From: Anaerolinea sp.
GTDB taxonomy: Bacteria; Chloroflexota; Limnocylindria; Limnocylindrales; CSP1-4
Assembly: GCA_013822395.1 (NCBI GenBank)
Contig: PNKK01000005.1
Coordinates: 33,637 to 97,636, forward strand
DNA length: 64,000 nucleotides
Direction of reading: 5' to 3'
The notes under the pieces are model-generated. The model was not told the origin of the DNA, did no database searches, and was given only the letters and a program-made list of their open reading frames with translations. Position numbers and translations under genes: made by a program. Below, one piece after another: positions 28,882-48,802 of the stretch; the first letter of the stretch is position 1, and the number at the start of each line of letters is the position of its first letter.

Positions 28882-29270
28882 TCGGCTCAACGCTCTCGGA
28901 GGACCGCTGCGAGACGGAGTGCATCCATCCCGAGCACGTCCGCCCGCTGCTCGGTCGGACGCTGTCGGGCGAGGGCGCACTGCGCGTCGGGGACCTCTTC
29001 GGGCTGCTGGCCGATCCGACCCGAGCCCGCATCCTGCACGCCCTGACGCTCACCGAGGAGCTCTGCGTCTGCGACCTCGCGCTCCTCCTCGGCCTGTCGG
29101 TCTCGGCCCTGAGCCACCAGCTCCGGCTGCTCCGCGATCGTGACGCGGTGGCCCGCCGGAAGGTCGGGCGGATCGTCTACTACCGACTGGCCGACGACCA
29201 CGTCCGTCGGCTCCTGACCGACGCGCTCGTCCACGTCGGCGAAGCGGCCCAGCTCAAGGCCGCCGGCTGA
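28878..29270 (+). CDS. ArsR/SmtB-family metal-responsive regulator
   Basis: LFGLLADPTRARILHALTLTEELCVCDLALLLGLSVSALSHQLRLLRDRDAVARRKVGRIVYYRL. Confidence 0.92.
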   Translation: MIGSTLSEDRCETECIHPEHVRPLLGRTLSGEGALRVGDLFGLLADPTRARILHALTLTEELCVCDLALLLGLSVSALSHQLRLLRDRDAVARRKVGRIVYYRLADDHVRRLLTDALVHVGEAAQLKAAG

Positions 29271-29275
29271 AGCGC

Positions 29276-30115
29276 ATGATCTTCTCGTCCCCCCTGGCCG
29301 GGTTCCTGCACCGAGTATGGCAGCGGAGTTCCGTCGTCGTGGTCGGGCGCGCAACGGACGTTCCTCCGCCCGGCCTGTCGTGGGTCACCGTGGCCCGGCC
29401 CGTGGGGGCCCGATCATCGCTCGAAGCGATCGAGCCAGCGCTCCGGCGCCTGGGCGGGATGGCAGGGCTCGTCACCCTTGGTGCCGCGCTCGCCGGGATC
29501 GGACACGGGCTGCGGCGTGCCGGCGTACGGCAGACGGGCGGGCCGGGCGTCGCGATTGGACCCCTTTCCTTGACCGCGATGACGGCCGGATCCCTCGCCG
29601 CGAGCGCGATCCTGTGGCACGGTCTTCCGATTGCGCTCGGCCCAGGGGCCCGAGCTCTCGCCGCGGGCGCGGGCGGCACCGCCCTGTTCTCCGGCCTTGG
29701 TCTCTACCTGTCCGGGATGGCCGCCCTCGGGCCCGCGTACAACGTCTCCTCGACGTTCGGGGCACGGCTCTATCAGGATCAGCGCCTCGTCACGTCGGGG
29801 CCGTACGCCATCGTGCGTCACCCGATGTACGCCGGGCTCATGATCGCTGCCGTCGGCGCGCTCGTCCTCTACCGGACGTGGACGACGCTCGCCTACGTCG
29901 CTGGGCTGCCCGTGCTCATCGCCCGTGCGCGACGCGAGGACGAGGTCCTTGCCGATCGGTTCGGAGCCGAGTGGGAGGCGTACCGCGATCGCGTGCCGGC
30001 CTGGATCCCGCGTCCACGGTTATCGGGAGTGGCGCTGGAAGCTGCGCCCACGGCGGCGACCGAAGGGGCGCGCAGGGTGGCGCGACCACAACGCCTGTTC
30101 CGGCTCCGTTCCTGA
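29276..30115 (+). CDS. Isoprenylcysteine carboxyl methyltransferase-like (ICMT/PEMT) membrane protein
   Basis: VTSGPYAIVRHPMYAGLMIAAVGALVLYRTW...RREDEVLADRFGAEWEAYRDRVPAWIP. Confidence 0.88.
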   Translation: MIFSSPLAGFLHRVWQRSSVVVVGRATDVPPPGLSWVTVARPVGARSSLEAIEPALRRLGGMAGLVTLGAALAGIGHGLRRAGVRQTGGPGVAIGPLSLTAMTAGSLAASAILWHGLPIALGPGARALAAGAGGTALFSGLGLYLSGMAALGPAYNVSSTFGARLYQDQRLVTSGPYAIVRHPMYAGLMIAAVGALVLYRTWTTLAYVAGLPVLIARARREDEVLADRFGAEWEAYRDRVPAWIPRPRLSGVALEAAPTAATEGARRVARPQRLFRLRS

Positions 30116-30118
30116 GCC

Positions 30119-32110
30119 GTGACCCACGACGAGCGCCAGCACGCCTGCGGCGACACGGGCTGCCCCGCGGACGAGCCCGCTCGTGCCGGCGAGCCCGAGC
30201 GCCTGATCGACGTCCCCGCGATCCGCCGCTCGGTCGTGGCGGGCGGCCTTCTTGGCGCCGGCCTTCTGGCCGGCTGGCTGCGGCTCGGACCGATCGAGAT
30301 CGTGGCCCTGGCGGGCGCGCTGCTCGTCGGGGGCTCGACGTTCGTCCCCGAGTCCCTGCGCGGGTTGCTCCACCGCCAGATCGGGGTGGGCACCCTGATG
30401 ACGACGGCGGCCCTCGGGGCGGTTCTGCTCGGCGAGATCAGCGAAGCGGCCACGCTCGCCTTCCTCTTCTCGATCTCGGAAGGCCTCGAGGGCTACGCCC
30501 TCGCCCGGACCCGGCGCGAGCTCCGGGCTCTCCTGGACCTCGTGCCGCCGACAGCCACGGTCCTCCGCGCCGGCAGGGAGGAGACGATTCCCGCGGAGGC
30601 CTTGCGGCTCGACGATCGGATGATCGTGCGACCGGGTGAGCGGATCGCGACCGACGGAGTGATTCGAGCTGGCCGCTCGTCGCTCGACGTCTCGGCGATC
30701 ACCGGCGAGTCGATGCCGATCGAGGGCGGCCCCGGCGACGCTGTCTACGCGGGCACGATCAACGGCGGCGGCGCGCTCGAGATCGAGCCCACCGCGCTCG
30801 TCGGGGACAACTCACTCGCCCGGATCGTGCGGATCGTCGAGGCCGCCCAGGAGCGCAAGGGCCGGGGACAACGGCTGGCCGACCGGATCGCCCGCCCGCT
30901 CGTGCCCGGGATCATCGTGATCGCCTCGGCCGTCGCCGTGGTCGGCAGCCTGCTCGGCGATCCGGGCGTCTGGCTGCCGCGCTCCCTCGTCGTCCTCGTG
31001 GCGGCGGCGCCGTGCGCCTTCGCCATATCCGTGCCCGTCAGCGTCGTCGCGGCGATCGGCTCGGCGAGCCGATCGGGGATCCTCATCAAGGGCGGAGCCG
31101 CGCTCGAGACATTGGCCGGGATCCGGGTCGTCGCGCTCGACAAGACCGGCACGCTCACGCGCAACGAACCACGCGTCACCCGGGTCATGCCGGCTGCCGG
31201 CGTGGACGCCGCCGAGGTCCTCCGAGCTGCCGCCGCCCTCGAAGCTCGAAGTGAGCACCCGTTGGCGCGGGCCGTCCTCGCAGTGGCGCCCGATATCCCG
31301 GTCGCCGAGGACGTGATGGCCCTGGCCGGCCAGGGCCTGACCGGAAGGGTCGCCGGTGTGGAGGTCCGCCTCGGGCGTCCGTCCTTCGTCTCGCCCGGTG
31401 TGCTGGCCGGGGCCGCGGAGTCGCTCGAAGCGGAGGGCGCGACGGTCGTCATCGTCGAGCGTGGGGGCGTCCTGCTCGGCCTGATCGGAATCCGCGACGA
31501 GCTGCGCCCCGAAGCCGGTGCCGCGGTCCGCGCGATCCGCCGGCTCGGCGCCGAGGTCGTCATGCTCACGGGCGACAACGAGCGTACGGCTGCGACGATC
31601 GCCGCCGAGGCGGGCATCGCACGCGTCCACGCCGGCCTGCTGCCCGCGCAGAAGGCGTCGCTCGTCGAGGAGCTCCGCCGGTCCGGCCCGACGGCGATGG
31701 TCGGCGACGGGATCAACGACGCCCCGGCGCTGGCGACGGCCGATGTCGGCATCGCGATGGGCGCGATGGGCACCGATGTCGCCATCGAGACGGCCGATGT
31801 CGCGCTCATGGGCGATGATCTCCGCCACGTGCCGCAGGCGATCCTCCACGCCCGCCGGGCCCGGACGGTCATGCGCCAGAACCTCATCCTGTCGGGCTCG
31901 ATCCTCGTCGTCCTCGTCCCCCTCGCCGCCACCGGCGCCCTGGGGCTCGCTGCCGTCGTCGCTGCCCACGAGATCGCCGAGGTCCTCGTCATCGCGAATG
32001 GGCTTCGTGCGCGTCGGGCGACGCCGCTGCCCGGCGGCGACCGCGGTGTATGGGGGGAGACGTCGCCGGGCACTCCCTTTCTGGCGCGCCGCCGGATCGA
32101 GGACTCCTGA
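30119..32110 (+). CDS. P1B-type heavy-metal translocating ATPase, AAPC motif, no HMA domain
   Basis: LVAAAPCAFAISVPVSVVAAIG, DKTGTLTRNEP, HPLARAV, GDGINDAPALATADVGIAMG. Confidence 0.93.
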   Translation: MTHDERQHACGDTGCPADEPARAGEPERLIDVPAIRRSVVAGGLLGAGLLAGWLRLGPIEIVALAGALLVGGSTFVPESLRGLLHRQIGVGTLMTTAALGAVLLGEISEAATLAFLFSISEGLEGYALARTRRELRALLDLVPPTATVLRAGREETIPAEALRLDDRMIVRPGERIATDGVIRAGRSSLDVSAITGESMPIEGGPGDAVYAGTINGGGALEIEPTALVGDNSLARIVRIVEAAQERKGRGQRLADRIARPLVPGIIVIASAVAVVGSLLGDPGVWLPRSLVVLVAAAPCAFAISVPVSVVAAIGSASRSGILIKGGAALETLAGIRVVALDKTGTLTRNEPRVTRVMPAAGVDAAEVLRAAAALEARSEHPLARAVLAVAPDIPVAEDVMALAGQGLTGRVAGVEVRLGRPSFVSPGVLAGAAESLEAEGATVVIVERGGVLLGLIGIRDELRPEAGAAVRAIRRLGAEVVMLTGDNERTAATIAAEAGIARVHAGLLPAQKASLVEELRRSGPTAMVGDGINDAPALATADVGIAMGAMGTDVAIETADVALMGDDLRHVPQAILHARRARTVMRQNLILSGSILVVLVPLAATGALGLAAVVAAHEIAEVLVIANGLRARRATPLPGGDRGVWGETSPGTPFLARRRIEDS

Positions 32111-32213
32111 GACCGACGCGAATGGCGATCGTGATGCATCCCGGGGGATACGACCACGTCGGCCGCCGCGCATCCCGATCGTGCGCAGGCGAGCACCGTG
32201 GACCCCGTCGAAC

Positions 32214-32744
32214 TCAGCCCGGGCTCTCGGCACCTCGGCGAAGCCGATCGCCAAGCGCCATCAGCGAGAGGAGCACGACCGCCCCGCTGATCGCGACGTC
32301 GGCAACGTTGAACGTCGGCCAGCGGATGCTCCCGACCCCGAGATCGACATAGTCGAGAACGGCCGAGCGCGACGCGCGTTCCACCAGGTTCGCCAGGCCC
32401 CCGCCGGCAAAGAGGGCGAGAGCAAGTCTCATCGGCTGCGGGTACCTGCCCCGGAGGAGCCCGAGGACCAGCACGAGCGTCACCGTGCTGAGAACCGGGA
32501 CGAGTGGGCCCGTCCCGCGGAGCAGTCCGAACGCCGCACCGCTGTTCATCGATGGATACAGTCGAAGCACGTCTCCGATGACCGCCACCGGTGCCCGGAC
32601 CTCCGATCGGATCCAGGCGTCGATGAGGACGTCGGCTGCGACGACGCCGAGAATCACGGCAGCAACGAGGCGGTGATAGGTCTCGTCCCGGGCGAGGCCG
32701 CTCCTGCGCGAACGGCCTCGCCCGGGAGGCGTGATGTGCTCCAT
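32214..32744 (-). CDS. lspA: Signal peptidase II-like protein
   Basis: MNSGAAFGLLRG, GGGLANLVERASRSAVLDYVDLGVGSIRWPTFNVADVAISGGAVVLL-like LspA signature. Confidence 0.88.
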   Translation of the reverse strand: MEHITPPGRGRSRRSGLARDETYHRLVAAVILGVVAADVLIDAWIRSEVRAPVAVIGDVLRLYPSMNSGAAFGLLRGTGPLVPVLSTVTLVLVLGLLRGRYPQPMRLALALFAGGGLANLVERASRSAVLDYVDLGVGSIRWPTFNVADVAISGAVVLLSLMALGDRLRRGAESPG

Positions 32745-32769
32745 TAGGCCCGAGCGAACGGGCTCTCGA

Positions 32770-33342
32770 TCAGTCACGGGGTTGGCGGCGTGATCCGTCA
32801 GCTCGCTCCCCGGTCGGGGACAGCAGCGCCCAAGGGGAGCTTCGCTCGGCAGCCAAGGCTCCGGGCACCGCTCGACCATCGAACGCGCTCAGGAAGTCGC
32901 GCAGGGCGAGGTCGTCGAGCCCGTAGAAGACCGCTCGTCCCACCCTCCGCCGACTGACAACGCCGCGATCGCGGAGAACCCGCAGCTGCTGACTGACAGT
33001 TGGCTGCTTGAGGTCCAGCAGAAGGCCGAGGTCAAAGACGCACAGTTCGTCGGCGCACGCGAGAGCGTGGAGCATCCGCAGGCGCGTGGGATCGGCGAGA
33101 AGGACGAACGCCGCGGCGAGCATGTCAGCCTGGCCGGGTTGAAGCCTGCATTCAGCCGCTGACCGGACCTTCTCCGGGTGGAGCCATCCCTTGTCCGACA
33201 CGTCGGTCAAGTCAGGCCTCCCCGCGCGGGGCGACCCCGACCCGACCGGTGATGGCCCGATCCCGGTGGCTTTGGACCCGCGGGCTGGCGCGTGACCCGC
33301 TCTGTTGCCCGCGGAGGAGCTTCTGACAGTCCTTTCAGTCAC
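32770..33342 (-). CDS. ArsR/SmtB-family regulator (start uncertain; a downstream start is possible)
   Basis: FVLLADPTRLRMLHALACADELCVFDLGLLLDLKQPTVSQQLRVLRDRGVVSRRRVGRAVFYGL. Confidence 0.88.
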   Translation of the reverse strand: MTERTVRSSSAGNRAGHAPARGSKATGIGPSPVGSGSPRAGRPDLTDVSDKGWLHPEKVRSAAECRLQPGQADMLAAAFVLLADPTRLRMLHALACADELCVFDLGLLLDLKQPTVSQQLRVLRDRGVVSRRRVGRAVFYGLDDLALRDFLSAFDGRAVPGALAAERSSPWALLSPTGERADGSRRQPRD

Positions 33343-33350
33343 TCATGAAA
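33333..33350 (-). promoter_or_regulatory. Operator-like site A: reverse strand TTTCAT-GAGTGA-CTGAAA preceded by TATCGT
   Basis: Same spacing as sites at 40732 and 40832; located at the ArsR gene start. Confidence 0.55.
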
Positions 33351-33446
33351 CGATACACCATCCGCCCGGGGCGGCGCGTGGGCGGGCGGCGTCCGGCGAT
33401 CGCCAGAAGGGCCTGGTGCACGACGATGCGCGTCCTTGCGTTGTCC

Positions 33447-33888
33447 TCAGCGGTTCGACGACGGCGTCTCGTCGGTTTGCCCGGAGACGTCCCGCCGGCG
33501 GGGTCGCAGTGCCCGGCGCGACGGCGGGCCGTAGTTCAGGCACGCCTCGATCGCCGGGGCGACCTCCGCAAGGAGCTCGGCGCTTGCGTCGAGGAGCCGC
33601 TCGACCGCCGGGTCGGCGAGTCGGTAGACATTGTGGCGACCGTCCGATTCGACACGGACCAGGCCGCACTCCAGGAGACAGAGCAGGTGGTTTGATGCGT
33701 TCGACGGGCTGAGGCCGAGCCGAGCCGCGAGCTGCCCGGCACTCTGCGGGGCCGTCCGGAGCTCGAGGAGGATCCCGAGCCGCGCCGGATCGGCGAGGCC
33801 ACGGAAGAGCTTCGTATCGACGGCGAACGGCTCGGCTGATCGCGCGCTCGAGTGGTCCAGGAGGCGGACGGGTTCGCTCATGGCTCCC
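33447..33888 (-). CDS. ArsR-family winged-helix regulator
   Basis: FRGLADPARLGILLELRTAPQSAGQLAARLGLSPSNASNHLLCLLECGLVRVESDGRHNVYRLAD. Confidence 0.88.
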
Positions 33889-33894
33889 ATGGTA

Positions 33895-33932
33895 AGCGGC
33901 CCCGGCGGCGGGGGGAGCCGCCGGGGCCGAGG
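33895..33932. terminator. Strong 13-bp stem-loop CGGCCCCGGCGGC-gggggga-GCCGCCGGGGCCG (coordinates approximate)
   Basis: Direct reading between the ArsR gene and the upstream membrane protein; no T-tract seen. Confidence 0.4.
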
Positions 33933-33934
33933 TG

Positions 33935-34245
33935 AGCTTCGCATGCCGAGCGTTTTCGACCAGGACGCGGGGCGCAACGCCGTTCAGCGAGCTCATGCAT
34001 GTGATATGGGCCCGGTCCCTCGGCGACGCGAGCCGGACGACCCACTCGACGATGCCACCGAGGACGATGGCACCGATCAGCGCCGACAGCAGGAAGAGAC
34101 CCCCGGCCTCCGGGCCCCACGTGCTCGTGGCGCCGAGCGACTCGCTGCCGACGAAACCGCCGATCCCGGCGCCGACCGCCGTGATGAGCCAACCGTATCC
34201 CTCGCGGGACTCGCCGACCGATCGATATGCCCAGCCGACGATCAA
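33935..34245 (-). CDS. GlsB/YeaQ/YmgE-like small membrane protein (3' end uncertain)
   Basis: MIVGWAYRSVGESREGYGWLITAVGAGIGGFVGSESLG...GLFLLSALIGAIVLGGIVEWVVRL; the open frame runs on over the ArsR gene, so the true end is unclear. Confidence 0.5.
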
Positions 34246-34250
34246 GGGGC

Positions 34251-34529
34251 TCAGGCGAGGCTCTCTTGCTCCAGAGTACGAACCAGCTCGCCGATCTGCT
34301 CGGCCCGCTTGTCAGGGGGAAGCGACGCGTACGCTACGCCGACAAGGAAGGCCGAGATCGGGGCGGCAATCCGCTCACTCGTGTGGGCCGCGACCCGTGC
34401 GAGGTCGAGGATGGCCGCCTGCTCCCGTGGCGTCGCCGCATTCGGCGAATCACCGGGCAGGAGTGCGGCGAGGCGCTCGAGCCATTCGTTGAAGGTGACC
34501 GCGGTCTCCGGGCGTTGCGCCGTCATCAA
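34251..34529 (-). CDS. DUF6457-like small protein
   Basis: TFNEWLERLAALLPG...ILDLARVAAHTSERIAAPISAFLVGVA. Confidence 0.65.
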   Translation of the reverse strand: MMTAQRPETAVTFNEWLERLAALLPGDSPNAATPREQAAILDLARVAAHTSERIAAPISAFLVGVAYASLPPDKRAEQIGELVRTLEQESLA

Positions 34530-34532
34530 GTC

Positions 34533-34865
34533 TCACTCCTGTGTATCGAGGACCTCTCGTGCCCAGCCATAGGCCGCCGCGGTCGCCGGGAACCCGGCGG
34601 TCGGGATGGCGATCGCGATGGCGTGCAGGAGTTCCGCCGCCTCGATCCCTTCGCTCAGCCCCCGACGCACGTGGGAGCGGACGCCGCCCTCCGAGGCCAG
34701 GCCGATCGCAATCCCGAGCTTGACCAGGCGCTGTTCACGCTGGCTCAGCGGTCCGGCACGGCGGCACGCGTCGCCCAGGGCGTCGTAGGCCTCGGCGATC
34801 CCTGGGTGTTCGGCTCGCAGGTCGCGGTAGACACGCGGCAGGTAACCGCGGGCCCCTTCGGTCAT
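34533..34865 (-). CDS. Carboxymuconolactone decarboxylase / AhpD-like protein
   Basis: LSQREQRLVKLGIAIGLASEGGVRSHVRRGLSEGIEAAELLHAIAIAIPTAGFPATAAAY; the usual CxxC is absent. Confidence 0.75.
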   Translation of the reverse strand: MTEGARGYLPRVYRDLRAEHPGIAEAYDALGDACRRAGPLSQREQRLVKLGIAIGLASEGGVRSHVRRGLSEGIEAAELLHAIAIAIPTAGFPATAAAYGWAREVLDTQE

Positions 34866-35046
34866 CTCGGGCTCCTCGTTGCGGCGGTCGGACCCACGCG
34901 GGCGCGGTAGTCACGGTCCGCGATCCGGTCTGCCGCACGATGGTACAGACCGCCGGGCGTTCGCCAGCCCCAGGCGCGCCGCCGAACACGAATCGAAGCC
35001 CAGCACGGAGGAAGCGGAGCCATGCCGGTCCTCAATCTGGACTGTG

Positions 35047-36180
35047 TCATGCAGCTTCGGTCATCGAGGGTCGACGACGCAACAGCCACTGGCCGGCCAG
35101 CACGACGAGGGCGACCACCGCCAGGATCCACAGCCCGACGAGCCACTCCATGAGGGTCGGGAAGTAGTCCCACCGCAGGCCCGGACCCGTGTAGGCGCCG
35201 CGCAGCTCCTCGATCTCGGGGACCGCCAGCGCCGTGATGACCAGGTTGAGCTTGGTCGACAGCGCCGTGACGGCGATGAGCGCGGCTGCGCCCGCGATCG
35301 CCAATCGTCGCCCGGGCGCGAAGAGGAGAAGGGCCAGAGGGATCGCCACGCCGAGCAGCACGTGGATGATCCAGAACGCCCACCAGTACGGGCCGGCCAA
35401 CACGAGCTCGACGCTCGCCGCGTACGCCGGGATGGAGGCGTAGATCCCGATCGAGAGCTCCGCGAATTCGACGACGATCAGGACAAGGAGCGCCCCGAGG
35501 ACGATCCGGCCGAGGACCCGCCCGACCGAGTCCGAAACGACGCCGAACAGCAGCCCGACGAACGTGACAAGCGCGATCCCCGAGAGTGCCCCCTCGACCA
35601 GGAAGAGGATCGGGGTGAGACCCGAGTTCCAGAAGTCGCGGGCGCCGACGACACCGAACAGGGCGCCCTCGCCCCCTGCGAACACGATCGCGAGGACGGC
35701 GCCGATGACGCCGAGTCGCTGGACGGCGGGCGACGCACTTGTTCGACCGCGCCAGATCACCTGCCACGCGAGGATCACGAGGACAACCGCAAAGGCGGCA
35801 TAGAACCAGGCCATCCAGCCCATGATCGAGGTGAACCCGGTCGCCAAATACAGGCGCCAGGCGAGGAGCGGGTCACCGAGATCGATCCAGACGGCGAGCA
35901 TGCCGCCGGCGAATGTCGCCCCGGCCACGACCACGCCCAGTCGAACGATCCCCGCGAGCCGCTCGATCCGAAACGCAAGGACCATGCTGACCAGGAGGAA
36001 CGCCCCGGCCGACATGCCGACGAGCATCGTGTAGATCCCGACCCACAGACCCCACGGGACGTACGAGCCGTAGGCGGCCCCGGTGTGACCGGTCAGGACT
36101 CGCTGGACGACACCGACTGCGCCGACGAGAAAGGCCACGCCCGCCAGCACCCAGAGGACTCGATCGCGCGTCTTCATCAT
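35047..36180 (-). CDS. NrfD/PsrC-like membrane subunit
   Basis: YVPWGLWVGIYTMLVGMSAGAFLLVSMV; multi-TM; follows Mo/FeS/TorD genes. Confidence 0.9.
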   Translation of the reverse strand: MMKTRDRVLWVLAGVAFLVGAVGVVQRVLTGHTGAAYGSYVPWGLWVGIYTMLVGMSAGAFLLVSMVLAFRIERLAGIVRLGVVVAGATFAGGMLAVWIDLGDPLLAWRLYLATGFTSIMGWMAWFYAAFAVVLVILAWQVIWRGRTSASPAVQRLGVIGAVLAIVFAGGEGALFGVVGARDFWNSGLTPILFLVEGALSGIALVTFVGLLFGVVSDSVGRVLGRIVLGALLVLIVVEFAELSIGIYASIPAYAASVELVLAGPYWWAFWIIHVLLGVAIPLALLLFAPGRRLAIAGAAALIAVTALSTKLNLVITALAVPEIEELRGAYTGPGLRWDYFPTLMEWLVGLWILAVVALVVLAGQWLLRRRPSMTEAA

Positions 36181-36833
36181 CCTCGCTCCGCTGCTTTCCC
36201 GTCGTTGGGGCGATGTTCATCGAGCCAGGCGAGGTCGGCTTCCAGGATCTCGCTGATGAACCCGGCCGCACCAAGGTAGAACGCGTGCGCCTCGGCCCGG
36301 CTGAGGTCCGCCTGCCACAGCGAGAGCCACGGTGCCAGGTGGACGGCGATGAAGCCCCACCAGGCCTGCCGTGCCGACTCCATCTGGGCATCGGGCCCGT
36401 CGCCGGCCCGCCCGGCCAGGACGCCCAGGAAGCCGAGCTCGAGCGAGAGGTGATCGGGGGGCAGATGGACCGACGGGTCCGGGAGGAAACCCGCGTCGAG
36501 GTAGGCGCCTCGCACGGCGGCGGCCTCGGGGCCCATGAGCGTGCCACCGCTCAGGTAGAAGGAGCCGAACGGAGGAGCGAGTGGTTGGCCGGGTCCCTCG
36601 AAGAGACGAGTCGCCTCGCGGTTCAGGACCTCGATGGCGGCGTCGGCACCACCGAGCGCGCTGATCGCGTCCTGCATCCGACGAAGCTCGCCCGCGGCGT
36701 CGCGTCCAGCGGGCCCCGAGACATCGAGCTCGACGACCTGCCGGAGCAGGTCGGTCGTCACCGGGTAGCTGACGAGCCGCGATAGGACCGCATAGAGCAG
36801 GGTGCGATCGTGGGTCGGGGTCGAGAGCGTCAT
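36177..36833 (-). CDS. TorD/DmsD-family molybdoenzyme chaperone
   Basis: LLYAVLSRLVSYPVTTDLLRQVVEL...EATRLFEGPGQPLAPPFGSFYLSGGTLMG...DHLSLELGFLGVLAG. Confidence 0.88.
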   Translation of the reverse strand: MTLSTPTHDRTLLYAVLSRLVSYPVTTDLLRQVVELDVSGPAGRDAAGELRRMQDAISALGGADAAIEVLNREATRLFEGPGQPLAPPFGSFYLSGGTLMGPEAAAVRGAYLDAGFLPDPSVHLPPDHLSLELGFLGVLAGRAGDGPDAQMESARQAWWGFIAVHLAPWLSLWQADLSRAEAHAFYLGAAGFISEILEADLAWLDEHRPNDGKAAERG

Positions 36834-36834
36834 G

Positions 36835-39654
<2,820 letters not shown>

Positions 39655-39663
39655 GTCCGCCTC

Positions 39664-40584
39664 CTAAACCAGGTAGTAGACCTTCGGCTCGGTCCCGAGC
39701 TCCTCCTTGAGCCGCATGACGTTCGGCTGCCCGAGCAGCTCGGACACAAGGCTCGTGGAGTCGTTCGCGTCGCCGAAGTAGCCCGCCCGACCCATGCAGC
39801 TCACGATGCAGGCGGGCAGCTCGCCGCGCTCGACGCGGTGAATGCAGAAGTGGCACTTTCGGGCCTTGCCGACCGGCGCTGCATCGCGACGACGGATCCG
39901 ATCGGTGTTGTATTCGTGAGCCGCCACCGTCTCGTAGGGCTGCGGGTCGCCACCCTCGAAGTCGCTGTAGAAGTAGCCGCTGTCGAACGAGCGGGCGCTG
40001 TACGGGCAGGCGGTGATGCAGTAGCGGCAGCCGATGCACTTGTCGTAGTCGATGGCGACGATCCCGTCGGGCCGCTTCCACGTCGCGTTGACCGGGCAGA
40101 CGGGAACACATGGCGGCTGATCGCACTGCATGCACGGGCGCGGGACGAAGCGACGCGAGACGTTGGGATAGGTGCCGCTCGTCTCGGTCAGGACCGGCCG
40201 GTAGGCGATCCCGGGCGGAAGCTTGTTCTCGGTCACACAGGCGATCGTGCAGCCGACGCAGCCGGTGCACTTGCGGAGGTCGATGATCATCGCCCAGCGC
40301 CGCTGCTCGATCGGCTTCTCGAGCGCGCGCCGAAGGTCGACCATCATCCGGAGGATCAGGTCTTGACCTGCAATGGCATCGGGCAGGTCGGGGAGCGGGA
40401 CGATGTCGGCTGGGGCCGCAGCGGCGGCAGGCGCCGGACCGCCCTTCCGCTCGAATTCTGTGAGGAGGACCGCTGGCGCCACCAAGCCGGCGAAAGTGGC
40501 GCTCGCGAACCGGCTCAGAAACTTGCGCCGGGATGCGTCAGTGTCCAGGCCGGCCAGGACGTCCGGGTTGTTCGCGACGAGCAT
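39664..40584 (-). CDS. Four-cluster 4Fe-4S ferredoxin subunit (PsrB/DmsB-like) with Tat-like signal
   Basis: [63 protein letters not shown]...CIVSC. Confidence 0.92.
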
Positions 40585-40731
40585 GGACCGTCTCCCACTG
40601 CCACAGTCGTGTGGTCCGGGCAGAGACGCCTGCGCGTTACGCGCTCACCCCCAATGTCTTGCCCATGAGACTCGAACCTGCCTGGTGGGCAGAAGGTCCA
40701 CTCCTCCTCCAATCGCGGGACTATCGGCATC

Positions 40732-40748
40732 TTCAGTGCCCGATGAAA
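40732..40748 (-). promoter_or_regulatory. Operator-like site C: reverse strand TTTCAT-CGGGCA-CTGAA upstream of the Psr-like operon
   Basis: Matches sites A and B in arms and spacing; in the divergent region between FeS gene and ATPase. Confidence 0.5.
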
Positions 40749-40831
40749 CATGTCACCCCCGCGTCCCGGCGGGGTCACCCCGATTCGGTCCATCTGGTCC
40801 GCGGGGGGGGAGGCGCTGCGATCGAGTATCG

Positions 40832-40849
40832 TTTCAGCGGTGGCTGAAA
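40832..40849 (+). promoter_or_regulatory. Operator-like site B: TTTCAG-CGGTGG-CTGAAA preceded by TATCGT
   Basis: Perfect inverted repeat TTTCAGC-ggtg-GCTGAAA about 24 nt upstream of the ATPase ATG. Confidence 0.6.
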
Positions 40850-40872
40850 TCCCAAGAGCCGGAGGACGGGTC

Positions 40873-42864
40873 ATGACGGGGTCTGACCACGAGCGCGAGG
40901 AGGTCTTGGTGAACGAGGACCGGGACTCGGAGAGGGACGACGAACGCGACGACGACGGCGCCGCGCCCTCCCACTGGTGGCAGTACCGACCGATCATCGG
41001 TGCGGCGGTCTCGGGAGTCCTCCTCGCCGCCGGCTTTCTCGGCGGCCTGACCGGGATCCTCCCGGACGGGTGGCCGGTTCTCCTCTTCATCGCGTCGATG
41101 CCGTTCGCCGGTTACTGGTGGGCCCGCGAGGGGCTGGAAGAGCTGATCCACGAGCGCGAGGTCGGGATCGAGGTCCTGATGGCCGTCGCGACGGTCGGGG
41201 CGGCGGCGCTCGGCGCCTGGGAAGAGGCGGCCTTCCTCGTCTTCCTGTACGGCTCGGCCGAGGCCGTCGAGTCGCTCACGTTCGCCCGGACGCGCTCCGC
41301 GATCCGGGCGCTCCTGGACCTCGCACCCAAGGAGGCCCGCGTCCTGCGCGACGGCGCGGAGGTGACGGTTCTCGCGACCGATCTCGTCCCGGGCGACGTC
41401 TTTCTCGTCCGCCCCGGAGAGGGTCTCGCGACCGACGGAGTCATCCGGGCTGGCGCCTCGAGCCTCGACGAGTCGCCGGTCACCGGCGAGAGCGTCCCGG
41501 TCGACAAGGGTCCGGGCGACAAGGTCTTCGCCGGCACGATCAACCGTCAGGGCGCGCTCGAGATCGAGGCGACGAAGGCGTTCGCCGACAACACCCTCTC
41601 AGCGATCATTCACCTCGTCGAAGAGGCGCAGGAGCAGAAGGGCCGCGCGCAGCGCTTCATCGAGCGCTTCAGCCGTCGGTACAGCCCGGCACTCCTCCTC
41701 GGCGCGGTCGCCCTCGCCGTCGTGCCGATCGCCCTCGGCGGCGACCCGGGGACATGGCTCACCCGGGCGATCACCCTCGTCGTCGCCGGCGCGCCTTGTG
41801 CTCTTGTCATGTCCACCCCGGTCGCGATGGCGGCGGGCATCGGCACGGGCGGTCGGCGCGGCGTGCTGATCAAGGGCGGGATGCACCTCGAGAACCTCGG
41901 CCTCGTTCGTGTGATCGCCGTCGACAAGACCGGCACCCTCACCCACGGCCGACCCGAGGTGACCGACGTCATTCCGATCGACGGCGTCGAGCCGGCCCGC
42001 CTGCTCGGGCTCGCCGCCTCGGTCGAGCATCTCTCGGAGCATCCCCTCGCCCGGGCGATCGTCGGGGCGGCGGAGCGTCACGGCGTCCGGCCGGTCGAGG
42101 TCACCGACTTCGCGGCGCTCACCGGCGCCGGCGCCCGGGCCCGGGTCGAGGGGCACGAGGTCCACGTCGGGAGCCCGGACCTGTTCGCCGATCTCGGCGC
42201 GGTGCCCGCCGCGCCGGTGGCGACCCTCATCGAGGAGCTCCGCGAGGAGGGCAAGACCGTCGTTCTCGTGGGGGAGCGACCGGCGACGGGAACGGAGCCG
42301 AGCCGGATCGTGGGACTCCTCGCGATCCGCGACCAGGTCCGCCCAAACGCGAAGGCGGCGATCGAGGCGTTCCACCGGCTCGGTGTCGAGCGGGTCGTGA
42401 TGCTCAGCGGCGACCATCCGCGGACCGCGGCAGCGATCGCCCGCGAGCTCGGCATCGACGACGTCCGGGCCGGCCTCAAGCCGGAGGACAAGGTGGCGGC
42501 GATCCGCGAGCTCGAGGGCCGCTACGGCCCGGTGGCGATGATCGGCGACGGGGTGAACGATGCGCCGGCGCTCGCCGCGGCGACGATCGGGATCGCGATG
42601 GGCACCGCCGGCACCGATGCCGCGATCGAGGCGGCCGATGTCGCGCTCATGGCCGACGATCTCGAGAAGGCGGCGTTCGCGCTCCGGCTCGGCCGGCGGG
42701 CGCGCTCGATCTCCCGCCAGAACGTCGCCTTCTCGCTCGCGGTCCTCGCGGTTCTCATCCCGGGCGCGGCGGCCGGGCTCTTCACGGTGGCCATCGCCGT
42801 GACCGCTCACGAGGCGAGTGAGCTGCTCGCCGTCGCGAACGGCCTCCGCGTCGTCCGGGCGTGA
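40873..42864 (+). CDS. P1B-type heavy-metal translocating ATPase, GAPC motif, no HMA domain
   Basis: VVAGAPCALVMSTPVAMAAGIG; DKTGTLTHGRPEV; EHPLARAIVGA; GDGVNDAPALAAATIGIAMG. Confidence 0.94.
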   Translation: MTGSDHEREEVLVNEDRDSERDDERDDDGAAPSHWWQYRPIIGAAVSGVLLAAGFLGGLTGILPDGWPVLLFIASMPFAGYWWAREGLEELIHEREVGIEVLMAVATVGAAALGAWEEAAFLVFLYGSAEAVESLTFARTRSAIRALLDLAPKEARVLRDGAEVTVLATDLVPGDVFLVRPGEGLATDGVIRAGASSLDESPVTGESVPVDKGPGDKVFAGTINRQGALEIEATKAFADNTLSAIIHLVEEAQEQKGRAQRFIERFSRRYSPALLLGAVALAVVPIALGGDPGTWLTRAITLVVAGAPCALVMSTPVAMAAGIGTGGRRGVLIKGGMHLENLGLVRVIAVDKTGTLTHGRPEVTDVIPIDGVEPARLLGLAASVEHLSEHPLARAIVGAAERHGVRPVEVTDFAALTGAGARARVEGHEVHVGSPDLFADLGAVPAAPVATLIEELREEGKTVVLVGERPATGTEPSRIVGLLAIRDQVRPNAKAAIEAFHRLGVERVVMLSGDHPRTAAAIARELGIDDVRAGLKPEDKVAAIRELEGRYGPVAMIGDGVNDAPALAAATIGIAMGTAGTDAAIEAADVALMADDLEKAAFALRLGRRARSISRQNVAFSLAVLAVLIPGAAAGLFTVAIAVTAHEASELLAVANGLRVVRA

Positions 42865-42959
42865 CCCAGGAGGACAAGGATGTCCGAGGTCGACCCGCTT
42901 CTCCGGGCGGCCCTCGCCCGGCAATCGCAAGTCGGGGGCGAACGGATCGGCCCGGCGCC

Positions 42960-44413
42960 ATGAACGAGCCGCCGCTGCTGCCCGCCCCCGACGCGTACCG
43001 CCGGCGCCCGCTTCGGAGTTGGCTGCGGCTGACCATCGACGCGCGGCGGGCGGCGCGGGAGGGGCCGGCAGCCATCGCCGCGCGCCAGGACGCGCGCCTC
43101 CGCGTCATCGTCGCGCATGCTCGCGCGCGCAGCCCCTACTACCGCGAGCGATGGTCTGGCCTGCCGGATGCCCCGCGCCTCGATGAGCTTCCACCGGTGT
43201 CGAAGCCGGAGCTCATGGCCTGCTTCGACGACTGGCTGACCGACCCGCGGGTGAGGCTCCGCGACGTCGAGGCGTTCATCTCGGACCCCGCCCGGACGGG
43301 CGAGCTCTTCGCTGGCGAGTTTGCCGCCTGGACGACCAGCGGCACGACCGGTCAGCCCGGCGTGTTCGTCCACGACCGGGTCGCACGCGGCGTCTACGAC
43401 GCTCTGCTCGTCGCCCGGACGCGGGTGGTGACGCCGAGTCGGCTCCTCCGCGCCCTGGGACAAGGCCTGCGGATAGCGGCGGTCGTCGCGACCGGCGGCC
43501 ATCACGTGAGCACGACCCTGGTCAACCTCAACCGGCACCGTTTCCCGGTCCTCGCCCCACGGATCCGGACCTTCAGTGTCCTGACCCCGTTGCCGCGGTT
43601 GGTCGCGGCGCTCAACGCGTTCGACCCGGCCATCCTTGTCGGCTACCCGACCGCGGTGCACCTCCTCGCTCAGGAGGCGGAGCGGGGCCGCCTTCGCATC
43701 CGGCCAGCGCTGGTCGAGGTCGGTGGCGAGGTCCTGACGGCCGAGGCACGAGCCACGATCGAACGCTCCCTCAGCACCCGGGTCGTGGACCAATATGCGG
43801 CCGCCGAGTTCCCCGGCATCGCCTTCAGCTGCCGGATGGGCCGGCTCCACGCTAACAGCGACTGGGTGATCCTCGAACCGGTCGAGGCCGACTTCTCGCC
43901 CACGCCGCCGGACCAGGCGAGCCACACCGTGCTCGTCACCAACCTCGCGAACCGCGTTCAGCCGATCGTCCGCTACGACCTCGGCGACAGCCTCACGGTC
44001 AGCTCGGTGCCGTGCGCCTGCGGCAGCCCGCTGCCGGCGATCGCGGTCGGCGGCCGGCGAGGCGACGTCCTTCGCTTCCCCGGCGCGGACGGTCGCGAGA
44101 TCGCGATCCTGCCCCTGGCACTCGGCACGGTCGTCGAGAAGACGCCCGGCGTGCGCCGCTTCCAGGCCTACCAGAGCGGTAACCGCGAGCTGCGTGTCCG
44201 CATCGAACCCGACGACGCGTCGGATCGCGAGGCGACCTGGGCACGGGTGGTCGACCGCGTGGACCGCTACCTCGCGAGCCAGGCGATCGTCGGCGTCCGC
44301 CTCGTTCGCGACGAGGCATTGCCGGCCCGCGATCCTCGCTCGCAGAAGTTCCAGGCGGTGTGGGATGCGCGAACGCGACCGGCTGCGCTGGCAACCCGAA
44401 TCGGCGAGCCGTC

Positions 44414-44417
<4 letters not shown>
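42960..44417 (+). CDS. PaaK-like adenylate-forming (phenylacetate-CoA ligase-like) protein
   Basis: [71 protein letters not shown]. Confidence 0.85.
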
Positions 44418-44707
<290 letters not shown>

Positions 44708-44801
44708 TTGGGCCCACCCCAAATTCCGCCCAAGACAAGCATCGGGAGATCGGCGACGCAGGGCCGATCGACCCGGTGCATTCCCGATCCTGAGGTGAAC
44801 G

Positions 44802-45914
44802 ATGGAGACGCGGCGACACGCAACGGGCGCGACCAGGGTCCAAGCCGAGCCGGCGCGCCCATCGGGCGGCGACGGCCACGCGGGTGCGACGGGCGCCATC
44901 CAGCCGCCGACACCACCCGGACCGGAGTACCTCTACGACTGGTGGCCGGCGGCCACCGACGATCCGGCCCTCGGCTACCTCGCAGCCACCCTCCCGGATG
45001 GGGCTGCGGCACCCACCGGCCGGGACTGCGCTCGCCTATCGAAGGCCGCCTTCGTCTATCGAGAGCGGGCATCGGGACGTCGCTATCTGGCGAAGTTCTA
45101 CGCCACCAAGACGCCGGCGAGCCCCGAGCGCCATGCCGAGCGCGAGCTGGCCGCCAACCGAACGGCCCTCGCCGCGGGCTTGGACGGCGGGACGATTCGA
45201 GCCTGCCGGGTGTTCGACGCCTGGCGGGGCGTCCTCTTCCTCGAGTACGTCGATGGACTGACGCTCGATGACCTGATCGCGATCCGCCGCGACCGACCGG
45301 GCACCCTCCGGCCGGCCCTCGATGCAACAGCCCGCCTGCTGCTCGTCTGCACGTCACCGTGCCGGGAGGCGACGGTCCGGTCATCGACGGGTTGGACCTC
45401 CCGACCCGCATTGCGGTTGCCGAGGCGCGGGCGTTCGTGGACGATCTCGCGCGCTCGAGCGTCCTCAGCGGCGAGGCCACGATCGCCGACGGTCTCCGAC
45501 GCCGGCTCGACGCGTGGTCGGCACGCGCCTCGCTCACCGACTTCGACGCGACCCTCATCCACGGCGACGCGACGACCACGAACTTCGTCTTCCCCACGGC
45601 CACCGAGGTCGTCGCGATCGATTGGGAGCGGCTCGCGCCCGGCAATCCCGCCGACGATCGCGGACGGCTCGCGGCCGAGGTCGCGGCCGGGATCCGCAGC
45701 CACGGCGGGCCGGCCGCGGAAGCCGATGCGGTCGTCGAGCGGATCCTCGCGAGCTACGGCGCGGCCCTGGGCTCTGGGCGCATCGACGAGCCCTTTGTCG
45801 AGCGCTTCCGCTTCCACCGGGCATCGAGCACGCTGCGGATCGCGCGCAACGGCTGGCTCCCTTCTGACGGACCGGCTGTGGCTCGTCGCCCAGGCAGCGG
45901 CACTCCTCGCGTGA
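44802..45914 (+). pseudogene. Aminoglycoside-phosphotransferase-like kinase with two compensating frameshifts
   Basis: Frame A N-terminus (SKAAFVYRERASGRRYLAKFY...VLFLEYVDGLTLDDL), frame B middle (DFDATLIHGDATTTNFVFPTATEVVAIDWERLAPGNPADD), back to frame A (LTDRLWLVAQAAALLA stop). Confidence 0.75.
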
Positions 45915-46064
45915 CGAGGGAGGAGGAGCGGTGAAGCTACTACGGCGCCAACCGGGAAGAGATCGCGGTGATACCCGTCCACGGCGTGTCCGGCGCGGGC
46001 TCCAGGACCATGCCGTCGGACGTCTGCCCGCGGCAGCGCGGCCTGCATGCTATGCTGGTTTCAA

Positions 46065-46083
46065 AACACCCCCTCGGGGTGTT
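46065..46083 (+). promoter_or_regulatory. CsoR-type operator AACACCCC-ctc-GGGGTGTT
   Basis: Perfect 8-bp inverted repeat just upstream of the csoR-like gene, downstream of a TATGCT -10-like box. Confidence 0.7.
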
Positions 46084-46106
46084 CATCGAAACGAGAGGGA
46101 CGGGCG

Positions 46107-46418
46107 ATGGCCCAGCAACCGGGGCGCAAGCTGCGCAACCAGGTCAACTACATCCGTGGCCAGGCCGAAGGGGTCGGCCGCATGCTCGACAACGGCTCGC
46201 CGAGCGCCGACGTCGTCGTCCAGCTGCGGGCGATGCGGGCCGGGATCGACCGCGCCCTGCGCCTCGCCCTGGAGGGCAGCGCGCGCGAGCAGCTCGCCGC
46301 CGAGCTCCGGGCGCGGGTCCTCGCCTGCCCGGGGCTGTGCGACTACTGCGACGACCTCGACGCGATCGTTGCGGAGCTGGACCTCTCGGAGGTCATCGGC
46401 AAGGTGGCCGCGGCATGA
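46107..46418 (+). CDS. Metal-sensing CsoR/RcnR-family regulator
   Basis: LRNQVNYIRGQAEGVGRMLDNGSPSADVVVQLRAMRAGIDRALRLAL...LACPGLCDYCDDLD. Confidence 0.87.
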   Translation: MAQQPGRKLRNQVNYIRGQAEGVGRMLDNGSPSADVVVQLRAMRAGIDRALRLALEGSAREQLAAELRARVLACPGLCDYCDDLDAIVAELDLSEVIGKVAAA

Positions 46419-48802
46419 CGTTCGCCAACGCCACCGCCCGCCGCCGCTACCGGGTCGTCGACGGCTCGTGCCTCGACTGTGGGGGGGATGTCGCCGGAAC
46501 GCTGGGACGCATCCCCGGCGTCCGCTCGGTCGAGGTCTTCGACGCCGCGGGCATCGTCGGCGTCGAGCACGACGGGCGGGTCACGGACGAGCAGATCGAG
46601 CGTGCCGCGCGGAAGATCGGCCTTGGCCTCGCACCAGCCGAGGTTCGCCGCCCACTCGAACGCGAGCGGCCCTGGTGGCGCGCACCGAAGTTCCTGGCCC
46701 TCGCCGCCGGGGCGCTGCTGGTCGTCGCCGGGCTCGCCTTCGAGCTCGTGCTGGCTCAACCCGGGCTCGCCCTCCTCTTCTACGCGCCCTCGATCGCGGT
46801 GGCCGGCTTCTACCCGCTCAAGAGCGCGCTCGCTGCACTGCGCGAGCGGCGCCTGACGATCACGACACTCCTCGTCGTGGCGGCCATCGGTGCGATCGCG
46901 CTCGGGGTGGTCGGCGAGGCCGCCGAACTCGTCGTCATCTTCTCGCTCGGCGAGGTGCTCGAGGACTACGTCAGCGACCGGGCCCGCGGCTCGATTCGGG
47001 CCCTGATGGCGCTCGCACCGCCGATGGCGCTGCTCAAGGGCCCGGGCGGTCCGCTTCCGACCCTCGTCCCGGTCGAGTCGCTCGTGCCGGGCGACGTCGT
47101 CGTCGTCCGACCGGGCGAGCGGCTGCCGACCGACGGGCGGGTCGTGGCCGGCTCTTCCTCGGTCGACCAGAGTCCGGTGACCGGCGAATCGATCCCGGTC
47201 GAGGTCACTCCGGGGTCGGGCGTCTTCGGCGGGACCGTCAACGGCTCCGGGGCGCTCGAGATCGAGGCGACGAAGGAATGGTCGGATACGACCCTCGCCC
47301 GGATCATCCGCCAGGTCGAGGAGGCCGAGGCCGCGAAGGGCGGGGCCGAGCGCTTCGCCGATCGCTTCGGCGCCGTCTACACGCCGGCGATGTTCGTCCT
47401 CGCCGGCCTCGTGGCGATCGTGCCGCCGCTCCTCGGCGGCGATCTGCGCGAGTGGCTGTACCGCGCCCTCGTCGTGCTCGCCGTGTCGTGCTCGTGCGCG
47501 CTCGTCATCTCGGTCCCGGTCTCGGTCGTGGCGGGGATCTCGCGCGCGGCGCGCGACGGGATCCTCATCAAGGGCGGGGTCTACCTCGAGCGCCTGGCCG
47601 GCATCCGGTCGATCGCCTTCGACAAGACCGGGACGCTCACGGTGGGCCGACCGACCCTGACCGACGTCGTGGCGCTCGACGGCCTGACCCGCGACGATGC
47701 CCTGCGCCTGGCGGCCGCGGTCGAGGCCGCGAGCGAGCATCCCCTCGCGGCGGCGATCGTGGGTGCCGCCGCCGAGCGCGGCTTGGCCGTGGCGGTGGGC
47801 GCGGACCTGCGCGCCCTGCCGGGTGTCGGCGTCGAGGCCATGGTCGACGGCCGACGGCTGTTCGTGGGTCGCCTCAACGGCCGCGACATCGCCGCGGGTG
47901 CGGCGACCGAGGCGCTCGTCCGCCTCGAGCGGGAGGGCAAGACGGCCGTCGTTCTGGCCGACGGATCGCGGCCGCTGGCCGTCCTCGCGGTCGCCGACGC
48001 GCCGCGCGAGGGGGCCGCCCCGATCATCGGCGAGCTCGAGGGCATGGGCATCGAGCGGCTGGTCATGCTGACCGGCGACAACGAGCGCACCGCCGAGGCG
48101 ATTGCCTCCCGGCTCGGGCTTCGCGAGTGGCGGGCGGGCCTGCTGCCCGAGGACAAGACGGCGGCGATCGAGCGCCTGCGCGCCGAGCGGGGCGCGATCG
48201 CCATGGTCGGCGATGGGGTGAACGACGCGCCGGCCCTCGCGGTCGCCGACGTGGGCATCGCGATGGGCGCCGCCGGAACGGACGTCGCCCTGGAGACCGC
48301 CGACGTGGCGCTCATGGCCGACGACCTGGCCAAGCTGCCGGCCGCGCTCCGACTGGCCCGCCGGGCGATGACCAACGTCCGCCAGAACATCGCGCTCTCG
48401 CTCCTGACGCTCGCCCCGCTCATCGTCGCGGCGCTGGCAGGGTGGCTGTCGCTGACGGCCGGGGTCCTGCTCAACGAGGGCTCGGCGATCCTGATCATCG
48501 CCAACGGCCTCCGGCTGCTGCGCGCAGCAGAGCCGGCTCCGCCAGACTCGGACGCTCCCGCCTTCGACCCGGCCACCGCCGCCGAGCCCTCCCTGGAGTC
48601 GCCCCATGCCGACGGGCGAATTCGCGACGCGATGACGGCCTCGGCCAGCAGCGCTGAGTGGTTGAGGCTGTGCGGCCAGCGCAGCAGCTCCGACCAGGCC
48701 CATGCTGACGACAGCGAGATCACCACCGCCATCGCGGTTACCGTGCACGAGGTCGCCGAGCCGCTCGCCTTCGCCAACGGCCTCCGGGCCGCGAGGGCGT
48801 AG
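46415..48802 (+). CDS. P1B-type heavy-metal translocating ATPase with degenerate HMA domain, SCSC motif and chimeric C-terminal tail
   Basis: ATGA overlap with CsoR gene; RRYRVVDGSCLDCGGDVAGTLGRIPGVRSVEV; VLAVSCSCALVISVPVSVVAGIS; DKTGTLTVGRP; GDGVNDAPALAVADVGIAMG. Confidence 0.9.
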   Translation: MTFANATARRRYRVVDGSCLDCGGDVAGTLGRIPGVRSVEVFDAAGIVGVEHDGRVTDEQIERAARKIGLGLAPAEVRRPLERERPWWRAPKFLALAAGALLVVAGLAFELVLAQPGLALLFYAPSIAVAGFYPLKSALAALRERRLTITTLLVVAAIGAIALGVVGEAAELVVIFSLGEVLEDYVSDRARGSIRALMALAPPMALLKGPGGPLPTLVPVESLVPGDVVVVRPGERLPTDGRVVAGSSSVDQSPVTGESIPVEVTPGSGVFGGTVNGSGALEIEATKEWSDTTLARIIRQVEEAEAAKGGAERFADRFGAVYTPAMFVLAGLVAIVPPLLGGDLREWLYRALVVLAVSCSCALVISVPVSVVAGISRAARDGILIKGGVYLERLAGIRSIAFDKTGTLTVGRPTLTDVVALDGLTRDDALRLAAAVEAASEHPLAAAIVGAAAERGLAVAVGADLRALPGVGVEAMVDGRRLFVGRLNGRDIAAGAATEALVRLEREGKTAVVLADGSRPLAVLAVADAPREGAAPIIGELEGMGIERLVMLTGDNERTAEAIASRLGLREWRAGLLPEDKTAAIERLRAERGAIAMVGDGVNDAPALAVADVGIAMGAAGTDVALETADVALMADDLAKLPAALRLARRAMTNVRQNIALSLLTLAPLIVAALAGWLSLTAGVLLNEGSAILIIANGLRLLRAAEPAPPDSDAPAFDPATAAEPSLESPHADGRIRDAMTASASSAEWLRLCGQRSSSDQAHADDSEITTAIAVTVHEVAEPLAFANGLRAARA
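48660..48730 (+). repeat. 71-bp perfect direct repeat, copy 1 (in ATPase 3' tail)
   Basis: ggttgaggctgtgcggccagcgcagcagctccgaccaggcccatgctgacgacagcgagatcaccaccgcc, identical to 49988..50058. Confidence 0.95.

What the first reader, a model, noticed from the sequence alone, without database searches (positions are those of the whole stretch)
32770..42864. Putative metal-regulated molybdoenzyme module: ArsR regulator, P1B ATPase and a Psr-like operon share one operator motif
Three sites have the same arms and spacing, TTTCA[GT]-N6-CTGAA[AG]: site A (33333..33350, at the ArsR gene), site C (40732..40748, upstream of the FeS-Mo-TorD-NrfD operon) and site B (40832..40849, upstream of the divergent ATPase). 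Sites A and B also share a preceding TATCGT. This suggests one ArsR-family sensor controls both a metal-export ATPase and a respiratory DMSO-reductase-family complex. ArsR regulators, P1B ATPases and Psr/Phs/Arr-type molybdoenzymes are known families; linking them in one metal(loid)-responsive respiratory/detoxification unit is my inference. Substrate is unknown: polysulfide/thiosulfate, arsenate, antimonate and selenium oxyanions are all possible.
Basis: partly seen in the sequence, partly recalled or inferred. Interest (0 to 1): 0.8.

Follow-up and report, generated by a model that had tools for sequence, protein, structure and literature searches.

The report
Molybdoenzyme operon inserted into metal-resistance regulon

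Summary
The three sites are real. TTTCAK-N6-CTGAAR has exactly three exact sites in the 2.93-Mb genome, all in this 7.5-kb stretch. The same palindrome (TTTCA-N8-TGAAA, usually with a GTATCG shoulder) recurs at orthologous promoters in relatives. A matrix built only from relatives picks sites A and B as best in the window; nothing as strong occurs in 3 Mb of simulated DNA. Site C keeps the core but has one degenerate flank.

The regulator is probably not the 32.8-kb ArsR. The motif tracks a CmtR-like ArsR at 33447-33890: 7 of 8 genomes with it versus 9 of 99 without, p=3e-6. Genomes with the 32.8-kb ArsR but no CmtR lack it.

In G033 the ATPase faces, across sites B and C, a small membrane gene then CmtR. 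In the window a 6.5-kb FeS-Mo-TorD-NrfD-CMD-CMD block replaces 190 bp between site C and the now truncated small gene. Four other Chloroflexota orthologues of the Mo operon have a PhnD/kinase/response-regulator system instead.

So the Mo operon was apparently captured by a Cd/Pb-type regulon. The insertion is well supported; metal control of the Mo operon, and its substrate, are inferred.

The parts
33333..33350 (-). operator A, TATCGTTTCATGAGTGACTGAAA on the minus strand, upstream of ArsR2-LspA
   Evidence: best-scoring window site with a matrix from relatives, 30.6 bits
40731..40748 (-). operator C, GACATGTTTCATCGGGCACTGAAG on the minus strand, 147 bp upstream of FeS; homology with G033 ends inside it
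   Evidence: weak flank, 5.2 bits
40832..40849 (+). operator B, TATCGTTTCAGCGGTGGCTGAAA, 24 bp upstream of the ATPase ATG
   Evidence: 26.6 bits; same position in G033, G032, G051, G015
33447..33890 (-). CmtR-like ArsR-family regulator, proposed binder of the three sites (ORF open to 33977)
   Evidence: nearest PDB 2jsc CmtR, 5.8e-14; CxxxC plus C-terminal Cys kept in all 12 homologues
32770..33342 (-). ArsR/SmtB-family protein (ArsR2), proposed target of site A; likely start near 33201
32214..32879 (-). LspA (signal peptidase II), overlaps ArsR2, probably same transcript
   Evidence: Pfam Peptidase_A8
33980..34245 (-). remnant of a small membrane protein gene, lacking its first ~14 codons and its stop; intact in G033 between site C and CmtR
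34242..40743 (.). inserted Mo block relative to G033:C7 (replaces 190 bp)
   Evidence: blastn boundaries 34241 and 40744
34251..34529 (-). second carboxymuconolactone decarboxylase-like protein, last gene of the block; its orthologue ends the block in G033:C221
34533..34865 (-). carboxymuconolactone decarboxylase-family protein
   Evidence: Pfam CMD
35047..36180 (-). NrfD/PsrC-type membrane subunit
   Evidence: Pfam NrfD 7.6e-25
36177..36869 (-). TorD-family chaperone
   Evidence: Pfam Nitrate_red_del
36835..39654 (-). 939-aa Tat-signal molybdopterin catalytic subunit (MoA), Cys179 at the Mo-ligand position
39664..40584 (-). 4Fe-4S electron-transfer subunit with Tat-type N-terminus
40873..42864 (+). 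P1B ATPase (ATPase2), P1B-4-like, APC and HEAS motifs
   Evidence: best PDB 7qbz, 5.2e-128
42960..44417 (+). PaaK-like adenylate-forming protein, conserved behind ATPase2 in relatives
44360..44707 (+). FdxA-like ferredoxin, conserved behind ATPase2 and PaaK

Best explanation
The three sites are operators of the CmtR-like ArsR-family repressor encoded at 33447-33890, not of the 32.8-kb ArsR. Without metal the dimer sits just downstream of a -10-like TATCGT and blocks transcription of the P1B-4-like export ATPase (site B), of ArsR2-LspA (site A), and of its own transcription unit (site C). Cd(II) or Pb(II), bound by its three cysteines, would release it. In this lineage a 6.5-kb block (FeS-Mo-TorD-NrfD-CMD-CMD) was inserted between site C and the small membrane gene that precedes cmtR. 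The block therefore now lies first in the repressor's own operon, so an uncharacterised periplasmic respiratory molybdoenzyme would be made when toxic metal is present, with the repressor at the far end of the transcript. Shown by sequence: the sites, their conservation, the motif-CmtR co-occurrence, the insertion boundaries, the truncated gene. Inferred: binding, metal, repression, co-transcription, the enzyme's substrate.
For: Exactly three exact sites genome-wide. Motif conserved at ATPase2, CmtR, LspA and ArsR2 promoters in G002, G015, G019, G032, G033, G051, G090. Family-wide scan of 107 genomes: strict palindrome in 7 of 8 CmtR genomes and 9 of 99 others, Fisher p=3.2e-6, the 9 being about what base composition predicts. 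ArsR2 orthologues without CmtR (G046, G021, G076) have no motif; G067 has ATPase2 and ArsR1 but neither CmtR nor motif. CmtR cysteine pattern invariant in 12 homologues, nearest solved structure CmtR. Window 40744-41680 is 90% identical to G033:C7 932-1 and window 33501-34241 is 82% identical to 1867-1124, so 6.5 kb replaces 190 bp between collinear flanks. The gene at the inner boundary is truncated in the window and intact in G033, and the matching sequence is also seen between site C and CmtR in G032 and G051. The Mo block lies elsewhere in G033 (C221). In G194, G203, G360 and G419 the Mo operon adjoins a conserved PhnD-SBP/HK/RR system; no close match of that SBP was found in G000 or G033.
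Against: Site C is the weakest: its FeS-side flank is degenerate and its matrix score (5.2 bits) is below several chance window sites; homology to the old promoter stops inside it. The Mo operon may have its own promoter in 40585-40730. The CmtR-like protein scores 71 bits against a CmtR cut-off of 150. No motif lies directly upstream of cmtR here, and 361 bp separate it from CMD2. More distant CmtR-like genes (G194, G126, G128, G181) lack this palindrome. The genomes are incomplete MAGs, so absences are soft.
Confidence: 0.62

Rival explanations
1. Site C is a vestige: the repressor controls the ATPase and ArsR2-LspA, but the inserted Mo operon is driven by a promoter it brought along, within 40585-40730.
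For: Right flank of site C is degenerate and homology to the ancestral promoter ends inside it. Elsewhere the Mo operon is next to its own two-component system.
Against: The TGAA half-site is kept at exact spacing (chance about 1 in 700 for 70% GC DNA, my estimate from base frequencies), the GTGACATGTTTCA side with its conserved upstream GTGACC is intact, and the usual two-component regulator was not found here.
Confidence: 0.25
2. One reading: the 32.8-kb ArsR (ArsR2) is the sensor that binds all three sites.
For: Site A lies at its own promoter; motif precedes its orthologues in G033, G051 and G032.
Against: Motif absent at ArsR2 in G046, G021 and G076, which lack CmtR; motif present in G002, G015 and G019 without ArsR2. 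ArsR2 keeps only one Cys of ELCxC.
Confidence: 0.08
3. The junction of Mo block and metal regulon is a metagenome assembly chimaera.
For: The window is part of a 194-contig, 70%-complete MAG; the Mo block has lower GC (0.67) than its flanks (0.71-0.73).
Against: Both flanks of the block match one relative contig in the same order and orientation, which would need two matching errors; G033 of the same family carries the same block, with the same CMD genes, at 82-84% DNA identity.
Confidence: 0.04
4. The motif matches are chance in AT-rich promoter DNA.
For: The motif was first defined from the three sites themselves.
Against: Independent recurrence at orthologous promoters and a matrix from relatives only.
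Confidence: 0.01

Closest known systems
CmtR (Rv1994c) Cd/Pb-sensing ArsR-family repressor of Mycobacterium tuberculosis
   Same: Nearest solved structure (2jsc); CxxxC in the recognition helix and a C-terminal Cys; gene near a P1B ATPase; CmtR is known to be self-regulating (PMC3338718)
   Different: Operator TTTCA-N8-TGAAA differs from the TATAA-type site I recall for CmtR; regulon includes LspA, a second ArsR and, here, a molybdoenzyme block; 71 bits against an equivalog cut-off of 150
ArsR regulation of arr and ars operons in Shewanella sp. ANA-3 (Murphy and Saltikov 2009)
   Same: An ArsR-family repressor controls both detoxification and a respiratory molybdoenzyme
   Different: There the metalloid is the enzyme's substrate pair; here the sensor is of the Cd/Pb type, the pump a P1B ATPase, the enzyme is not ArrA, and the link arose by insertion
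YgaV/SqrR/BigR sulfide-responsive ArsR-family repressors
   Same: 16-bp palindrome (ATTC-N8-GAAT) and control of anaerobic respiratory genes by YgaV (PMC9774250)
   Different: Different arm register (TTC-N8-GAA against TTC-N10-GAA here) and cysteine pattern; CmtR-like protein scores 27 bits against the BigR model, cut-off 155
Psr/Phs/Arr/Arx branch of the DMSO reductase family
   Same: Tat signal, 4Fe4S, Cys at the Mo-ligand position, FeS partner, NrfD anchor, TorD chaperone
   Different: Separate 100%-supported clade on a long branch, not inside Phs or Arx; far below every NCBIfam cut-off
sCoaT P1B-4 ATPase (7qbz)
   Same: Full-length match, no N-terminal metal-binding domain
   Different: APC for SPC and HEAS for HEGS at the membrane metal motifs

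Membership tests
CmtR Cd/Pb sensors | two Cys as CxxxC in helix alpha4/R | tested here: met
   CLLEC aligned with the CLRGC of 2jsc, invariant in 12 homologues
CmtR Cd/Pb sensors | third, C-terminal Cys ligand (Cys102 in M. tuberculosis) | tested here: inconclusive
   a C-terminal Cys (EAC) is invariant in 12 homologues, but the 2jsc alignment ends before that position
CmtR Cd/Pb sensors | NCBIfam NF047906 equivalog cut-off 150 bits | tested here: not met
   71 bits, hence CmtR-like only
CmtR Cd/Pb sensors | Cd/Pb releases DNA | not testable with these tools
   needs protein
SqrR/BigR sulfide sensors | operator ATTC-N8-GAAT | tested here: not met
   conserved core is TTCA-N8-TGAA, register differs
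SqrR/BigR sulfide sensors | NF040642 cut-off 155 bits | tested here: not met
   ArsR2 44 bits, CmtR-like 27 bits
ArsR/CadC alpha3 sensors (for ArsR2) | ELCxC dithiol | tested here: not met
   ELCVF in the window; second Cys absent in all homologues seen
ArrA arsenate reductase | NF041714 cut-off 1600 bits | tested here: not met
   164 bits
PhsA/PsrA | NF012032 (PhsA) cut-off 694 bits | tested here: not met
   255 bits, still the best-scoring family
PhsA/PsrA/Arr branch | Cys ligand to Mo | tested here: met
   C179 in SICDTPRR aligned with SLCTAPRE of PsrA, invariant in the clade
P1B-4 ATPases | SPC and HEGGT-type membrane motifs | tested here: not met
   APC and HEAS at these positions although 7qbz is the nearest structure

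The most novel reading that the evidence does not exclude
A Cd/Pb-type ArsR-family repressor regulon has captured, by insertion directly behind its autoregulatory operator, a horizontally acquired respiratory molybdoenzyme of an undescribed clade that elsewhere answers to an oxyanion-sensing three-component system. Respiration with an unknown acceptor thereby became metal-inducible, and the enzyme detoxifies or respires a compound met together with Cd/Pb.
Probability: 0.4. Interest if true: 0.65.

Novelty: new variant of a known kind. Interest (0 to 1): 0.5.

Why it matters
It shows, with the ancestral arrangement preserved in relatives, how a respiratory operon can change regulator in one step: insertion behind a metal repressor's own operator. 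It predicts testable Cd/Pb induction of a molybdoenzyme. It also defines a clade of Psr/Arr-like enzymes, one member next to an arsenite-oxidase-type operon and one carried by a phage, whose substrate is unknown and worth assaying.

Tried and rejected
ArsR2 (32.8 kb) or ArsR1 (28.9 kb) as binder of the motif: rejected by phylogenetic distribution. Motif in wider CmtR homologues (G194, G126, G128, G181): none found. Motif upstream of other Mo operons (L041, L042, G194, G360, G419): none. FeS gene of G033, to read its upstream region: not in the assembly at high identity. AlphaFold model of MoA: pLDDT 38, unusable, so no fold search was made. MoA as ArrA, PhsA, DmsA or type II: below every cut-off. 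Plasmid collection: no close MoA relative. No paper was found that joins these elements.
Full report
Observation. The three sites exist. TTTCAKNNNNNNCTGAAR matches exactly at 33333-33350, 40731-40748 and 40832-40849. The window is positions 33637-97636 of contig C5 of a 2.93-Mb, 70%-complete MAG, and there is no other exact match in that genome. All three read the same way relative to the gene they precede, and their cores are alike beyond the arms: GTTTCA[T/G][G/C][A/G]G[T/G][G/C][A/G]CTGAA.

Is it a functional motif? The test that does not reuse the window is comparative. Orthologues of the ATPase (59-91% identity), of the 32.8-kb ArsR and of a second ArsR-family gene at 33447-33977 were located in 200 related genomes and their surroundings read. 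A matrix trained on 22 such sites from other genomes gives 30.6 bits to site A and 26.6 to site B, the two best in the window; the best score in 3 Mb of first-order Markov sequence is 20.1. Site C scores only 5.2, because its FeS-side flank is degenerate, although its core is intact.

Which regulator? A scan of 107 genomes of the family for the palindrome was set against the presence of each regulator. The strict palindrome occurs in 7 of 8 genomes with the 33.4-kb gene and in 9 of 99 without it (Fisher p=3.2e-6). The eighth, G015, has the sites with one changed outer base. Genomes with ArsR2 but without the 33.4-kb gene (G046, G021, G076) have none; G002, G015 and G019 have the sites but no ArsR2 orthologue; G067 has the ATPase and ArsR1 but neither the 33.4-kb gene nor the sites. 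The 33.4-kb protein has M. tuberculosis CmtR (2jsc) as nearest structure and carries CxxxC plus a C-terminal Cys in all twelve homologues aligned, whereas ArsR2 has lost the second Cys of ELCxC. It falls below the CmtR equivalog cut-off (71 against 150 bits), so it is called CmtR-like. That Cd(II)/Pb(II) is sensed is inferred from known CmtR (senses cadmium and lead, PMC3338718).

How did the Mo operon get there? In G033 the ATPase promoter (site B), 94 bp further site C, then a 97-aa membrane protein gene and the CmtR-like gene lie in one stretch. The window matches this contig over 40744-41680 (90%) and 33501-34241 (82%), in the same order and orientation, and between the two matches it holds 6.5 kb where G033 has 190 bp. 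The 6.5 kb is the FeS-Mo-TorD-NrfD-CMD-CMD block. The 97-aa gene has lost its start and first codons at the boundary and runs on without its stop, while it is intact in G033 and its counterpart lies at the same place in G032 and G051, so the window is the derived state. G033 carries the same block elsewhere (C221, 82-84% DNA identity), ending at the same CMD gene. The block is less GC-rich (0.67) than its flanks (0.71-0.73).

What is the Mo enzyme? The 939-aa subunit has a Tat signal, a 4Fe4S site and Cys179 at the Mo-ligand position, and comes with a Tat-type FeS subunit, NrfD and TorD. It is far below all NCBIfam cut-offs (PhsA 255 of 694, ArrA 164 of 1600). In a tree with Phs, Arx-type, Dms, Ynf, Nap, Fdh and 21 distant relatives it forms its own 100%-supported clade on a long branch whose placement is open; the window's copy groups with a MAG deposited as Proteobacteria, not with the other Chloroflexota copies, which points to horizontal transfer. 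In G194, G203 (L042), G360 and G419 the operon adjoins a conserved PhnD-type binding protein, histidine kinase and response regulator. That binding protein was not found in G000 or G033, both incomplete. In L041 the operon lies beside an Arx-like arsenite-oxidase-type operon (the Arx reading rests on cluster layout and my knowledge of arx clusters, the records themselves say only molybdopterin-dependent oxidoreductase). These contexts suggest an oxyanion substrate but do not name one.

The pump. ATPase2 is nearest to the P1B-4 ATPase 7qbz, with APC and HEAS in place of SPC and HEGS, so its metal is open. It is followed by a PaaK-like protein and a ferredoxin in relatives as well.

Conclusion. 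Shown: the motif, its conservation, its tie to the CmtR-like gene, and the insertion of the Mo block between the repressor's own operator and its gene. Inferred: repressor binding, Cd/Pb release, transcription of the Mo block from the site-C promoter. The main doubt is whether site C still works. A shared ArsR-family control of detoxification and a respiratory molybdoenzyme is known from Shewanella ANA-3 (cited in PMC6683785), and YgaV affects anaerobic respiration genes in E. coli (PMC9774250). The new part is the type of sensor, the enzyme clade and the route of acquisition.

Noticed in passing
L046 9293-13531 and L047 9293-10952 (IMG/VR contigs 3300048578_000205 and 3300048598_000226): A FeS-Mo-TorD operon of the same molybdoenzyme clade (59% identity) lies between phage replication genes and a phage tail-completion protein, terminase, portal and head protease: a respiratory-type molybdoenzyme carried by a phage.
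   Followed up: partly
L041 1684-7462 and 8894-14777 (FK3.bin53): The MoA operon lies directly beside an Arx-like (arsenite-oxidase-type) operon; a Sulfuricella plasmid carries an 88% identical Arx-like catalytic subunit.
   Followed up: partly
window 40873-44707; also L114, L116; L042 1046-4584: A P1B ATPase is repeatedly followed by a PaaK-like adenylate-forming protein and, in the family, a ferredoxin; the role of this pair in metal resistance is unexplained.
   Followed up: no
window 28872-48802: Three P1B ATPases, three ArsR-family regulators, a CsoR-family regulator (46047-46418), LspA and an ICMT-like methyltransferase lie within 20 kb, a heavy-metal island.
   Followed up: no
L042 205-4584: Next to the Mo operon of another Chloroflexota MAG lies a CmtR-like/LspA/P1B ATPase/PaaK cluster without the motif, an apparently separate association of the same parts.
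   Followed up: partly
L043 9882-12135: Broken copy of the FeS/Mo genes in a Thermomicrobiaceae MAG, several frames, probably a decayed operon.
   Followed up: no
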